64,000 nucleotides of DNA from contig CAWUHX010000003.1 of assembly GCA_963922205.1 (NCBI GenBank), forward strand, positions 3,141,335 to 3,205,334, written 5' to 3'. The notes beneath the pieces were generated by a model, which saw nothing but the letters and a program-made list of their open reading frames with translations, made no database searches and was not told where the DNA came from. A program made the position numbers and the translations under genes. Source of the stretch: Romanomermis culicivorax (lineage: Eukaryota; Nematoda; Enoplea; Mermithida; Mermithidae). Positions 20,719 to 29,895 of this stretch are shown here, piece after piece; positions within the stretch are counted from its first letter, which is position 1; each line of letters begins with the position of its first letter.

Positions 20719-22660
20719 TTGTCCTTTTCTAGCCCCATCGCTGAGTGGCCGCTAGATATTGGAAAGAACAAGCGTTACAGCCTCAACACGCCGTCGCGCA
20801 AACGATCTCGTACTTCCCGTGCTTCCTCGCCACGCGACTACAAAAGTAACTCTTACTTTACGTCTACACCTAGACGTTCCTGTCGACTTAGTACTAAGTT
20901 TAAACGGACAAGTGAACCCCTCTCTATTCAGTTTGATCGAATAACTTCACAGGCACGATCATCAGTCTTAGATACCTTACAGGAAGACGAATTCTCATCT
21001 ATGAAGTCAGAAATTGATTTACCTTCACAGATTGAGAATAAGGTCCAAGCTGCATTTGAGAATGCCCTTGGACCACTCAACCAAAAGCTAGAGGCTATGA
21101 ATGGCAGAAGGCACCCTCCTGTGTCCAGCTTCATGGCCCCTCCAGCCTTTTCAGGCGCTTTTGGTGAGTCCATAACGGATTTTATATCCCACTTGACCCG
21201 CTTCTTTACACTTCAAGGGGTAACAGAAGCGGATCATGCATATAAAATCGCGTTTTTGGAGTCTTGCCTCACAGGTCCTGCTCTGGCATCCTACCGGGAC
21301 TTTAGCAGTGGTACTCCGCAGCCTACCCGCTACGAAGAGTTCACAGCTTTTCTTAGGAGAGACTTTCCAGTAGGGCGTGATTCAGATCTGCATCAGCAGT
21401 TGATCCAGGATCGCCTGCAGAAGCCGACTGAATCAGCGATAGTCTACCTTGAGCACCTTAAGAGACTGTCCAGGGTGGCTTATCGGGATCTCGCGACTGA
21501 CGTTAGGGATTCTATTATTAAACCTATCTTTCTGAGAGGGTTGCGACCAGTCCTTAGAGATAGTATTAAGTTCAGGGAGTTCACAACTCTTGAAGAGACT
21601 CTTAAAGCAGCCTGTTACGCGGAATCACAGATTTTTCGGGATGAGATTAGGTACACTGCCCCATCTAATGCTGTTTTCTCTTCAGAACAAAGGACCGCCG
21701 ACAACGTCAGGTCAATGTCGAATCAAAGGAGCACCGCTCAACGTCCGTCGGCCATGCCGTCCGACGAGGTTCAACGTTTACAATCGGAGATGGCCCGGCT
21801 CACGGCTCACGTTGCGCGACTTACGGCTCAGCAATCGGCGCCACCTTCGAGAAATTCGACGCCGTCATCGACGCCGTCGACGCGTGTCCAAACCGCCGGC
21901 GATCGCCCGTCAGGGGCACATCTACAGATGTGCTCCTACCATGGACGCTGCACCCACAACGACGCTACCTGCCGGGCGCAAAATCCCGATAGCGCCGGCC
22001 CTAGCACCGCCTCCGCCACCGGCGCCAGCCGTTGCTACTTTTGTCGAACGAGGGCGCACCCGACTGACCGATGCCACAGACCCTGCCCGCATTGCCGAAA
22101 ACTACGAGTGCACCGGGCAACGGCTTGCCCCAATCGAAATTCGACACTGCCTGGTGAGACTAATTTTGGTAATTCTGGTTATTCTCCTCAGGGGGCAAGT
22201 GGAAATTTTCGGAGGTATGCTAACCCAACTCCTCACGGGACAGGGAACCAATATCGGTCACCTCCACGGCAAAATAATGCTGTAGGGGTTACCGACGGTC
22301 TTCTTCACCCAGATTTATTTGATCTGGATGATGAAGTTTTGGCTGAACACCTGGCGGATCGCTCACAACTGTGTTATCCTGTCTGTGTAATCAGTATTGG
22401 CTTTTCAGCTACGGCAGTGGTTTCGGCGACCCCGTTATCGACTTTTCCGCCGCCACCACCGAAATACGCGACGCCGGTCAACGTAAACCCGTCAGCGACA
22501 CCGAAAACGACTGGCCACGTCAGCGTAATGGCGTCGTATCGACCGACGGAAGGTACAACGGCGCCACCGGCACGTGTTATCAACCAGGGACCGCCGCCCG
22601 GAATTCCCACGGACTCCGCGTTGGAGGTCGTCGGTCAACTGGAATCGATGAATCTGATAG
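20719..22660 (+). CDS. gag: Gag-like polyprotein
   Basis: Structural protein of the retroelement particle. The frame is open from 20665, but the first in-frame ATG is only at 21001 (residue 95 counted from 20719). A strong acceptor (CCTTTTCTAG| at 20732) suggests the start lies on an upstream spliced exon. The N-terminus is Ser/Arg rich. Residues about 140-310 form a retrotransposon-gag capsid domain (FSGAFGESITDF, then LTGPALASY and FLRGLRP). Residues 439-452 are a CCHC zinc knuckle (CYFCRTRAHPTDRC), preceded by a CxxxHxxC-type variant at 405 and followed by CPHCRKLRVHRATAC. In unspliced RNA the frame runs on to 25332. Splicing at 22661 leads into the acidic ORF. Confidence 0.9.
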
Positions 22661-22746
22661 GTAAACTGCCTTCTTTTTCTGAAGTTTCAAGTTCACAAAG
22701 TAGATATCTTTACAAGTCTCCGGCTTTAATGATTTCTTGCTTACAG
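22661..22746 (+). other. Putative 86-nt intron switching reading frame
   Basis: The donor GATAG|GTAAAC and acceptor TTTCTTGCTTACAG| delimit 86 nt. Removing it joins gag (frame 1) to the acidic ORF (frame 3) without a stop. Protein-like codon use moves to frame 3 exactly at the acceptor. No transcript data were available. Confidence 0.6.
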
Positions 22747-28600: not shown

Positions 28601-29895
28601 AACCCTACGGTGATCAGAATGATGTAAATGGCTACCACCTGCTGGATAACATCCTTCAGAAGTGGACAGGCGAGTCCAACAAGATTGTCGTCCCTCGTTC
28701 AATGGTTACCACCATTATTGAGGCTCATCATAACGACATTCTTGCTGGACACTTTGGTGCAAAACGGACCGCGAGGCTTATAGCCCGTAGGTACCACTGG
28801 CATTCCCTCAGTGCGGACGTCAAGTCCTTTTGTCAGCAGTGTGATCTTTGCCAACGGAATAAACCTGCGAGACTGAAGACCCGTGCAACTCTGAAACCGA
28901 TTTCCATTACGGGTCCGTTTCATCGAGTCGGTGTCGACTGTATGGGACCAATGACCACTAGTGAAAACGGAAACCGATTCATTGTAGTTTTCATAGACTA
29001 CTTTACTAAATGGGTTGAAGCTTTCGCTACTCCGGACATTACTGCGCAAACTATAGCTCGACTTTTTGTTACTCAAATTGTCTGCAGACATGGGGCACCG
29101 CAGATTCTTCAGTCTGATCATGGTACTGATTTCACGTCCAAACTGATGACTGAAATCACTGCCATTTGTTCAACTAAGAAAATCCACTCCACCGCTTATC
29201 ATCCCATGACAAACGGAGAAGTGGAAAGAGCTAACCAAATGCTAGCCACACGGTTACGTATGTATGTCCACCAAGGCCATACTGATTGGGATGAGCACCT
29301 GCCGTATTCTGTGTTTGCTGTCAACATTAGCATGAATGAGTCCACAGGGTATTCACCCTTTGAACTCATGTATGGTCGTACTCCCATGCTACCCGTTGAT
29401 GCAGCACTCTCATTCAATCCTCCGGCCCATATCATAGATGTTTCTACTTATGATATAGAGGTCAAACGGCATTTTACAAATGCCTTGACCTTGATCCAGA
29501 GCAGAATTGAGAGATCACAGGCGGCTTATGCTAGGTCCTACGACCGCATGGCACGAGATGTCTCATACAAGGTTGGGGATCAAGTGCTCAAACTGCGCAC
29601 TACTGGAAAACGTGGTCTAACGCCCAAATTATTGCCCATTTATGATGGCCCCTACCTTGTCACGAATGTGGCTTATCCTAATGTCACCATTCGACTTGAG
29701 ACTGATCAAGAAGATACTGTGCATGTCAATCAGCTTAGACGCTACGTGTCACCAGCTCAGCCTACAGAAGAAGAGGAGATACCTTCCACTTCCCAGGTCA
29801 TCGAGACGGCACCTTTGTTGATCCCGTCAACAAATAGAGATTTTACACAAGATCTCATTGACCCACATCTTGATGCGGAGGTCGCCGACCCGTAA
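25627..29895 (+). CDS. pol: Pol polyprotein: protease 2, RT, RNase H, integrase
   Basis: An open frame of 1422 codons with no natural ATG at the start (the first codon after the TGA is TTG). Residues 20-85 are Ser/Arg rich. Residues about 205-320 are a second retropepsin (IDTG at 223-226, LVLGTNFL at 291-298). RT runs about 470-760, with LPFGLCNAPGTFQRLMD and the catalytic YLDD at 645-648. RNase H runs about 785-905, with D794 and the TDHTAVKAV strand. Integrase has an N-terminal zinc module (H..H..CQQC, Cys 1069 and 1072) and core D1104, D1164, E1200 with 35 residues between the last two. It is followed by a GPY/F-like stretch (YDGPYLVTNV, about 1339); no chromodomain. It copies the RNA and inserts the cDNA. 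Pol catalytic residues look intact. Confidence 0.96.
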   Translation: MNAVELPLLLTAAEIDQIEPWWENTRSLSRASHRSGSRSRSRTSSLSRPPSRASSIASSRGSTRGSRTSSRRASGHSMARSGSNCPRPPPGNSPITLEKGRFREPSDSDAHASPVLEVPPLSDVEVESLGATQSSGERSDHVLTVQVHPTPEANPETSVGYALVGLLRRTGLPIPRRTNAPESSFDDSVPDPGHVVSAFYPTEMRTPHIKVLLNNWVEAKALIDTGAVFSLLDHKLAVQLPDLVLTETRARPIAANGSPILLLGSAYVTVTVADVSERIQVQVQENCSAELVLGTNFLGRFNCVSLSWEKSFLQFKELRVPCEGLIHNPPSARGALPLQELIVLEPRSLTQFTAPVPSIYATVPEVAFFPKPLLGQQRNVYFAGTVSTVTNGCIPLQVANPSTHAVVLYPHTTIGHVQMHTDSLQGSAVKSDTILDRKWVEANAVISSDISSQDKTALLDLLVAFTDLYAVDEKDTGSTDLVHHEISTGDARPVRHFPYRTAPKEKDLIIQEVKALQEKGIIRPSTSPWATNTVLVRKKNGSHWMCVDFRGLNEVTKKDVYPLPRIDDILDTLKGMKYFTTLDQANAYWSIPIAEADREKTAFNAPIGLYEFNYLPFGLCNAPGTFQRLMDLLLTGLQWRTALTYLDDILVFGNSHTQMLERLTDVFTRLRQGGMKLRLSKCKFSHSEVEYLGYRISQKGLEPDKVKLAAVQDLPILQNAKDIKSFLGLVSYYRRFIPGCARLSEPLTKLLRKEVTFQWSKPQQSAFDELRRLLLNPPVLRHPDFTKSFILQTDASISGIGAVLSQLDENGYDHPVAYASRGLTAAEKNYTITELETLAVVHFVKHFRPYLFQHEVVVQTDHTAVKAVLEKPNPSSRIARWGLALAEFKLTIRPRKGRSNGNADALSRLPDPNSLAGESIDDIPLYRPEGEVMMISDGAQRLANSSQRTTNGAQHLARSESYAEISQDAQHHDLLATQFEDPELASILRSLKPYGDQNDVNGYHLLDNILQKWTGESNKIVVPRSMVTTIIEAHHNDILAGHFGAKRTARLIARRYHWHSLSADVKSFCQQCDLCQRNKPARLKTRATLKPISITGPFHRVGVDCMGPMTTSENGNRFIVVFIDYFTKWVEAFATPDITAQTIARLFVTQIVCRHGAPQILQSDHGTDFTSKLMTEITAICSTKKIHSTAYHPMTNGEVERANQMLATRLRMYVHQGHTDWDEHLPYSVFAVNISMNESTGYSPFELMYGRTPMLPVDAALSFNPPAHIIDVSTYDIEVKRHFTNALTLIQSRIERSQAAYARSYDRMARDVSYKVGDQVLKLRTTGKRGLTPKLLPIYDGPYLVTNVAYPNVTIRLETDQEDTVHVNQLRRYVSPAQPTEEEEIPSTSQVIETAPLLIPSTNRDFTQDLIDPHLDAEVADP

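What the first reader, a model, noticed from the sequence alone, without database searches (positions are those of the whole stretch)
20719..29895. Envelope-like glycoprotein encoded between gag and pol, in one continuous frame
In Ty3/Gypsy elements and retroviruses that carry env, it follows pol. Here the signal-like segment, glycosylated Cys-rich ectodomain and C-terminal TM helix lie after the gag zinc knuckle and before the first protease, all in frame 1. This order (gag, env, PR, PR, RT, RH, IN) is one I do not know from described elements and would demand spliced expression or cleavage of a membrane-spanning Gag-Env-Pol precursor.
Basis: partly seen in the sequence, partly recalled or inferred. 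Interest (0 to 1): 0.88.

Follow-up and report, generated by a model that had tools for sequence, protein, structure and literature searches.

The report
Retroelement with envelope between gag and pol
This is a virus-like jumping gene whose envelope (cell-fusion) protein is encoded in the middle of its gag-pol reading frame instead of at the end, and the same unusual order recurs in other elements of this genome and in roundworms, so it looks like an overlooked lineage of retrovirus-like elements.

Summary

The order gag-env-PR(-PR)-RT-RH-IN is not private. At least 79 host copies carry this Env; 13 of 79 lie in one 3018-codon frame. Six further families among eight host loci examined (Env 31-40% identical) show it, as do C. 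brenneri, C. remanei and unnamed proteins. Env and RT trees largely agree, suggesting one old acquisition. Variants shared among copies show purifying selection on Env (omega about 0.16) and the Env-proximal protease (0.05).

Two corrections: stops at 25330 and 25624 break the frame in this copy, and at 22.75-23.34 kb the constrained protein lies in another frame (0.27), an overlapping extra gene.

Likely mechanism (inferred): an internal signal peptide threads a Gag-Env-Pol precursor through the ER membrane. Spliced Env expression is the main rival. Ten full-text searches found no description of this order.

The parts
15526..16955 (+). 5' LTR (TG...CA)
   Evidence: Self-BLAST pair with 30356-31787, 99.51%; ends read
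16956..16967 (+). primer-binding-site-like TGGCGAGGCTGG directly after the LTR
   Evidence: tRNA not identified
16968..20718 (+). leader of about 3.7 kb without an ORF of 150 aa or more, with ~130-nt repeats at 18603-19051
20719..22699 (+). gag, frame 0 (first ATG 21001); capsid match 21169-21636; CCHC knuckle 22033-22074
   Evidence: PF19259 5.4e-7; codon log-odds; translation
22737..22746 (+). 3' splice-acceptor-like TTGCTTACAG in front of the overlapping ORF
   Evidence: TTTACAG or CTTACAG in 28 of 28 rows; use not shown
22749..23342 (+). overlapping ORF in frame +2 relative to gag/env (197 aa plus stop; Met at 22770 in 28 of 28 rows), unknown accessory protein
   Evidence: codon log-odds; omega about 0.27 on shared variants; no stop in the 68 best of 150 rows; no Pfam match
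23389..23472 (+). internal signal-peptide-like segment of Env, basic flank on the Gag side
   Evidence: hydropathy; net positive 40-residue flank in 13 of 13 elements looked at
23473..25011 (+). Env ectodomain, class III (gB-like) predicted fold; PF24664 match at 24244-24702
   Evidence: 14 of 16 ectodomain Cys invariant in 13 of 13 rows; omega about 0.16
25012..25116 (+). Env transmembrane segment
   Evidence: hydropathy; a segment after Env also in relatives (not in P0002)
25201..25623 (+). PR1, Env-proximal retropepsin-like domain: DTG 25300, LGLDF 25561; interrupted by TGA 25330 in this copy; TGA at 25624 follows
   Evidence: motifs, no Pfam match to either half; omega about 0.05; 150 host rows for its second half, 8 with a stop
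26257..26526 (+). PR2, retropepsin (DTG 26296)
   Evidence: PF13975 9.2e-7
27235..27714 (+). reverse transcriptase
   Evidence: PF00078 1.3e-32
27901..28290 (+). RNase H
   Evidence: PF17919 8.6e-36, PF17917 4.6e-36
28690..29205 (+). integrase (H2C2 zinc finger and core); ORF stop at 29893
   Evidence: PF17921 6.3e-20, PF00665 3.4e-8
30356..31785 (+). 3' LTR

Best explanation
The element belongs to a lineage of Ty3/Gypsy-type retroelements that long ago took up a class III fusion glycoprotein related to those of monjiviricete negative-strand RNA viruses (chuvirus/mononegavirus type), placed between gag and the protease, and has kept it there since. Gag, Env and Pol lie in one reading frame. 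Inferred working: the precursor is threaded through the ER membrane. [quoted passage not shown] That would bring Gag, Env and Pol together at the membrane in fixed ratio without a frameshift. This family has two additions: a second, highly constrained protease fused to the Env tail, and an overlapping accessory ORF across the gag-env junction. Shown: order, homology, predicted fold, conservation, selection. Inferred: expression as one precursor, topology, cleavages, fusion activity, infectivity.
For: Order in one protein in relatives: P0003, P0004, P0006 (C. brenneri), P0007 (C. remanei), P0010. Their N-terminal parts are Gag-like: a profile of the window, P0003, P0004 and P0005 Gags finds the N-termini of 7 of 7 Caenorhabditis-group proteins at 1e-13 to 7e-23, best shuffled control 0.86. 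In the host, of 79 listed env copies 56 have no stop in Env and 13 lie in a stop-free 3018-codon frame; the same 13 recur in the PR1 search. Other host families: stop-free frames of 2594, 2370 and 2703 codons; the frame upstream runs straight into the signal peptide in C538, C180 and C72. Basic flank on the Gag side in 13 of 13. Class III predicted fold. Env and RT trees largely agree. Purifying selection on Env, PR1, linker and PR2 in frame 0. No in-frame ATG lies between 23020 and the end of the signal segment.
Against: At 22749-23336 frame 0 is not constrained at residue level (about 2.1, versus 0.27 for frame +2), and variants shared by 4 or more copies create frame-0 stops at about the expected rate (3 against 3.4), although the commonest such stop is recurrent, not inherited. 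18 of 28 aligned rows have a frame-0 stop there, 17 of them among the 20 divergent copies. The Env model is of middling confidence (pLDDT 63, pTM 0.42) and its Foldseek TM-scores are low (0.22-0.40). The window Env has no R-x-K/R-R site of the kind seen mid-Env in the Caenorhabditis group. P0012 lacks a signal segment in its gene model and that of P0003 is weak. P0005 ends after the Env tail. No transcript, protein or particle was examined. Making equal amounts of Gag and Pol would be unusual for a retroelement, and how Gag excess is made is unexplained.
Confidence: 0.68

Rival explanations
1. Env (with PR1 and Pol behind it) is made from a spliced subgenomic RNA; Gag ends through the overlapping frame or elsewhere, and the open frame 0 across 22.75-23.34 kb is incidental.
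For: The constrained frame there is +2, with an acceptor-like TTACAG kept in 28 of 28 rows. Cer1 of C. elegans makes CERV from a spliced mRNA whose exon 4 uses its own frame (PMC10309623, section 9 read).
Against: The acceptor-like CAG directly before the signal segment (23386-23388) is present in only 7 of 27 other copies, and the donor-like GT at 22700 in 0 of 27. In C538, C180 and C72 the upstream frame runs directly into the signal segment. With the +2 protein fixed, synonymous permutation leaves frame 0 open in only 0.47% of shuffles (the interval was chosen for being open, so this is no clean p-value). Splice sites further upstream were not ruled out.
Confidence: 0.25
2. The env block is a private or decaying insertion without function.
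For: This copy has two stops in and after PR1; 23 of 79 listed copies have a stop in Env.
Against: All 79 listed env hits are full length; omega about 0.16 for Env and 0.05 for PR1; same order in other families and organisms.
Confidence: 0.01
3. The Env-like protein keeps the fold but serves another role (receptor decoy, assembly scaffold, cell-to-cell transfer of capsids) rather than virus entry.
For: No activity was tested; retroelement Env proteins can be reused (established knowledge).
Against: The Cys framework is kept in 13 of 13 aligned proteins, and signal and TM segments in most relatives (P0012 lacks the first, P0002 the second). R-V/M-K-R sites, of the type cut by furin (consensus recalled), stand mid-Env in 7 of 7 proteins of the Caenorhabditis group, five of them named; the window Env has none.
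Confidence: 0.06

Closest known systems
Cer1 (C. elegans Ty3/Gypsy) and its CERV protein (PMC10309623; abstract, section 9 and passages seen)
   Same: Ty3/Gypsy type, no stop between gag and pol, an extra protein partly in another frame
   Different: CERV is made from a spliced mRNA and is a nuclear export protein, not a fusogen; no env between gag and pol was seen in the parts read. The overlapping ORF here was not compared with CERV by sequence.
Atlas virus of hookworm (Belpaoviridae; PMC9094657, passages seen)
   Same: A single polyprotein that includes Env, without stops or introns
   Different: Order Gag-Pol-Env, BEL/Pao polymerase, class II phlebovirus-like Env
Anakin elements of mosquitoes (PMC7642597; passages seen)
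   Same: LTR element with a chuvirus-type glycoprotein
   Different: BEL/Pao lineage; that paper describes the Env-like proteins of three other BEL-Pao elements as downstream of the polyprotein
Lokiretroviruses (described in PMC9040795; passages seen)
   Same: Env related to Mononegavirales glycoproteins
   Different: Dual RNase H (passage); env after pol (recalled)
Errantivirus/gypsy (recalled) and TelKA of rotifers (PMC5408684, passages seen)
   Same: LTR elements with a captured env
   Different: env is a third ORF after pol; that of TelKA is of paramyxovirus F type

Membership tests
Ty3/Gypsy (Metaviridae) | Pol order PR-RT-RH-IN with Ty3-type capsid | tested here: met
Ty3/Gypsy (Metaviridae) | LTRs with TG..CA ends and adjacent primer-binding site | tested here: met
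   the tRNA was not identified
Ty3/Gypsy (Metaviridae) | short target-site duplication | tested here: inconclusive
   TTGT versus TGTA beside the two LTRs, no clear duplication in this copy; other copies not examined for it
Ty3/Gypsy (Metaviridae) | RT placed inside the family in a tree with named references | not tested
   No named reference RTs were at hand; trees held only these elements
Errantivirus (gypsy-like with env) | env downstream of pol | tested here: not met
   Env precedes PR; the 460 nt between pol stop and 3' LTR hold no ORF of 150 aa or more
BEL/Pao with captured glycoprotein (Anakin, Atlas) | BEL/Pao-type Pol | tested here: inconclusive
   Of 12 Pfam families listed for pol at E <= 1, none is one I recall as BEL/Pao-specific; no BEL/Pao reference compared
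Class III viral fusion glycoprotein | class III fold | tested here: met
Class III viral fusion glycoprotein | fusion loops and low-pH or receptor-triggered fusion | not testable with these tools
   needs experiment
Monjiviricetes fusion glycoprotein | family profile above gathering score | tested here: met
   PF24664, 60.2 bits, cut-off 27
Retroviridae | dual RNase H (tether plus RH) | not tested
   only one RH region was located

The most novel reading that the evidence does not exclude
An ancient lineage of retrovirus-like elements, recently active in this host, makes Gag, Env and Pol as one precursor threaded through the ER membrane, in the manner of flavivirus or alphavirus structural polyproteins. 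In this family the Env tail carries a membrane-anchored protease, so virus assembly, Env incorporation and enzyme packaging are coupled in one chain.
Probability: 0.55. Interest if true: 0.92.

Novelty: new variant of a known kind. Interest (0 to 1): 0.82.

Why it matters
The reverse-transcribing elements with env that I know of or met in the papers place it after pol. A conserved gag-env-pol order, found in several families of one genome and in Caenorhabditis, shows a second solution to building an enveloped retroelement. It gives a way to ask how Env is captured and expressed without splicing, how Pol is packaged without a Gag-Pol frameshift, and whether such elements move between cells or species. 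The Caenorhabditis members bring the question to tractable laboratory animals.

Tried and rejected
Private insertion: rejected. A 47-nt intron at 22700-22746: rejected, its GT is in 0 of 27 other copies. A splice acceptor at 23388 for Env: rejected for the family, CAG in 7 of 27. -1 frameshift into the +2 frame: no in-phase slippery heptamer in this copy. Stops at 25330 and 25624 as programmed readthrough: rejected, not shared. Shared frame-0 stop at 23095 as an inherited gene end: rejected, 6 changes on the tree against 6.5 for shuffled labels; C>T/G>A differences are about 2.2-fold commoner at CpG.
Led nowhere: viral-contig scans and genome contigs gave no relative; PDB sequence search with Env alone none, with A1 18 RT/pol rows and two ubiquitin-family rows; Rfam none in the window at gathering level; spliced-leader SL1 model and pattern none in the host, though the SL1 model rang in no control either, so the host phylum stays open. 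A search for cuticle collagen did not complete. Pfam finds no gag domain in the N-termini of P0005 and P0007; the profile comparison does. The +2-frame protein folded alone gave pLDDT 43.6, uninformative. Literature; the library lacks most subscription papers, so a description elsewhere is possible.
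Full report
WHAT IS IN THE WINDOW. Two 1.43-kb LTRs (15526-16955 and 30356-31785; BLAST extends both by two bases) differ at 7 of 1432 aligned positions. They begin TG and end CA, and a primer-binding-site-like TGGCGAGGCTGG follows the first. No clear target-site duplication was seen. A leader of about 3.7 kb has no ORF of 150 aa or more. Gag (Ty3_capsid, 5.4e-7; CCHC knuckle read from the translation) starts in frame 0 near 20.7-21.0 kb. In the same frame come a signal-like segment (23389-23472), a Cys-rich ectodomain, a TM (25012-25116), a first retropepsin-like domain (PR1, by motifs), a linker, PR2, RT, RNase H and integrase. 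In this copy TGA codons at 25330 and 25624 split the frame into ORFs 20719-25332 and 25627-29895.

IS THE ORDER REAL AND CONSERVED? Protein searches gave 2, 5 and 7 rows (the last includes the query and one protein found before): 12 distinct proteins. Five (P0003, P0004, P0006, P0007, P0010) carry env-PR-RT-RH-IN behind a Gag-like N-terminus in one protein. P0008, P0009, P0011 and P0012 run Gag-like, env, PR; P0005 is Gag-like and env; P0001 is env-PR and, by eye, the start of RT; P0002 is env only. Pfam sees Gag parts only weakly in P0003 (0.0011) and P0004 (CCHC, 0.0015) and not in the others, but a profile of the window, P0003, P0004 and P0005 Gags finds the N-termini of 7 of 7 Caenorhabditis-group proteins at 1e-13 to 7e-23 (best of the shuffled controls 0.86), and a profile-profile comparison gives 98.4%. 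In the reverse direction the Caenorhabditis profile finds P0005 and P0004 clearly, P0003 and the window Gag only at 0.0026. Source names given were C. brenneri, C. remanei and C. nigoni; the others are unnamed. These are predicted proteins, so introns in the gene models cannot be excluded. The junction motif GWQxN(R/Q)AP..(S/T)G before the signal segment recurs in P0006-P0010, with a variant in P0011.

COPIES IN THE HOST. The host assembly is 359,112,060 bases in 595 contigs. The Env query gave 79 listed matches (79 scored of 4031 first-look candidates, so a lower bound), 95-100% identical and all full length; 56 of 79 have no stop in Env; 13 of 79 lie in a stop-free frame of 3018 codons and 17 of 79 in one of at least 2900. 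The LTR query listed 40 matches (of 2498 candidates), among them 13 pairs spaced 14.83-14.88 kb, the window's included, and one pair at 10.8 kb. The stop at 25330 is in 0 of 26 other copies with sequence there, and that at 25624 in 2 of 27. So copies with the frame open exist and this copy is not one of them.

OTHER FAMILIES IN THE SAME GENOME. P0004 as query gave 31 matches from 20 scored candidates of 12,934. Several are stop-free where matched and cover Env and Pol in one frame: C180 (2594 codons), C429 (2370) and C538 (2703); in C169 (1941) gag, env and RT lie in one frame without stops in the matches. Others carry stops (for example C182 and C153). I took Env pieces of eight of these loci; all eight match the Env queries. 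At an 80% Env identity cut the nine host loci compared (window included) form seven families (Env identities to the window family 31-40%). The upstream frame runs directly into the signal segment in C538, C180 and C72; window Gag matches it in C180 and C72 (3e-8, 2e-9) but not detectably in C538; the sister copy C216 is interrupted there; no homologue of the +2-frame ORF was found in the four loci. The sequence before the hydrophobic core is net positive in 13 of 13 elements looked at (P0001, P0002, P0012 and the other host loci were not included), which fits Gag on the cytosolic side.

CO-INHERITANCE. Trees of Env and RT from 14 elements agree in their well-supported groups: the Caenorhabditis group is one side in both; C180/C538/C216 group in both; C127a/C1 group in both; the RT tree places the window with C180/C538/C216 at 100/100, where the Env tree leaves the window unresolved. 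C72 differs: with the P0004 group in the Env tree (80/98), with the window group in the RT tree (92/91), both below the support mark. Long branches are flagged in the RT tree for the window and P0003. This is what one old acquisition followed by joint descent would give, but root and outgroups are missing.

SELECTION. Window bases 22126-26781 were compared piecewise with 27 other copies (7 near, 20 chosen divergent). L014 and L023 have sizeable gaps, and L002 and L006 lose alignment near the 3' end, which inflates the singleton counts of the linker and PR2; all were kept. For variants shared by at least 4 copies, against random relocation of the same base changes with CpG status kept: Env 42 nonsynonymous and 128 synonymous (about 111 and 53 expected; omega 0.16); PR1 4 and 42 (0.05); linker 29 and 71 (0.20); PR2 12 and 33 (0.19); gag C-terminus 30 and 28 (0.63). 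Singletons give 0.59 for Env, 0.64 for PR1, 0.74 linker, 0.83 PR2, 1.18 gag C-terminus. The omega values are rough ratios, not model fits, and the copies are not independent. PR1 keeps DTG in 27 of 28 rows (the other is a gap) and PR2 in 26 of 28.

THE OVERLAP. At 22749-23336 codon log-odds favour frame +2, and shared variants are constrained in that frame (23 nonsynonymous, 46 synonymous; 0.27) but not in frame 0 (55 and 12; 2.1). With the +2 protein held fixed, synonymous shuffles leave frame 0 open in 0.47%; with frame 0 held fixed, frame +2 stays open in 6.05% (the interval was picked for being open, so these are not clean p-values). Divergent copies often have frame-0 stops there, the commonest at 23095, recurrent rather than inherited. 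I read this as a real accessory ORF of about 190-197 codons, not found in the other families examined, laid over a tolerant linker between Gag and Env. An acceptor-like TTACAG stands before it in 28 of 28 rows. A spliced or trans-spliced mRNA could make it, as with CERV of Cer1; that is an analogy, not a test.

MECHANISM. The simplest account of frame, flank charge, signal segment and TM is a membrane-threaded Gag-Env-Pol precursor. It is not shown. Two protease-like stretches also occur in P0006, P0010, P0011 and P0012. In P0006 an integrase-type zinc finger lies between them; in P0011 and P0012 only one stretch has the DTG motif. So an extra protease near the Env tail may have been gained more than once. 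Retropepsins work as dimers (established), so a PR1-PR2 pair in one chain is a possibility worth testing.

PRINT. Seven papers were seen in part: PMC10309623 (abstract, section 9, passages), PMC7642597, PMC9040795, PMC12440569, PMC5408684, PMC9094657 and PMC7828637 (passages). None of what I saw describes env between gag and pol. The library lacks most subscription papers.

Noticed in passing
43600-49700, minus strand: Broken non-LTR retrotransposon: RT-like and endonuclease-like ORF fragments (read by eye).
   Followed up: no
31784-32215: A 159-nt unit occurs twice (99%) directly after the 3' LTR, starting with the LTR's last bases; G+C stays high to about 32 kb. May be a recombination or nested-insertion scar.
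   Followed up: partly
21590-22285: An Arg-rich open frame of 231 codons overlaps the gag nucleocapsid part in frame +1; synonymous shuffles give no sign of selection to stay open (1 stop in the interval, 2.2 expected).
   Followed up: partly
18603-19051: Four ~57-nt repeats spaced 126-134 nt, around TGACGTCAGCAA-like sequence, in the long leader.
   Followed up: no
P0006 residues 1365-1414: An integrase-type H2C2 zinc finger sits between two proteases; P0010 also has two H2C2 stretches, the second not placed.
   Followed up: no
22749-23339, frame +2: The accessory ORF holds LSALAVLRI (read by eye), which fits a leucine-rich export-signal pattern quoted for Cer1 GAG in PMC10309623; short pattern, chance not excluded.
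   Followed up: no
host genome, 27 copies of 22126-26781: C>T and G>A differences from this copy are about 2.2 times commoner per site at CpG, hinting at CpG decay in this host.
   Followed up: partly
10842-11812 and 46000-46600: Diverged tandem array and an inverted-repeat cluster.
   Followed up: no
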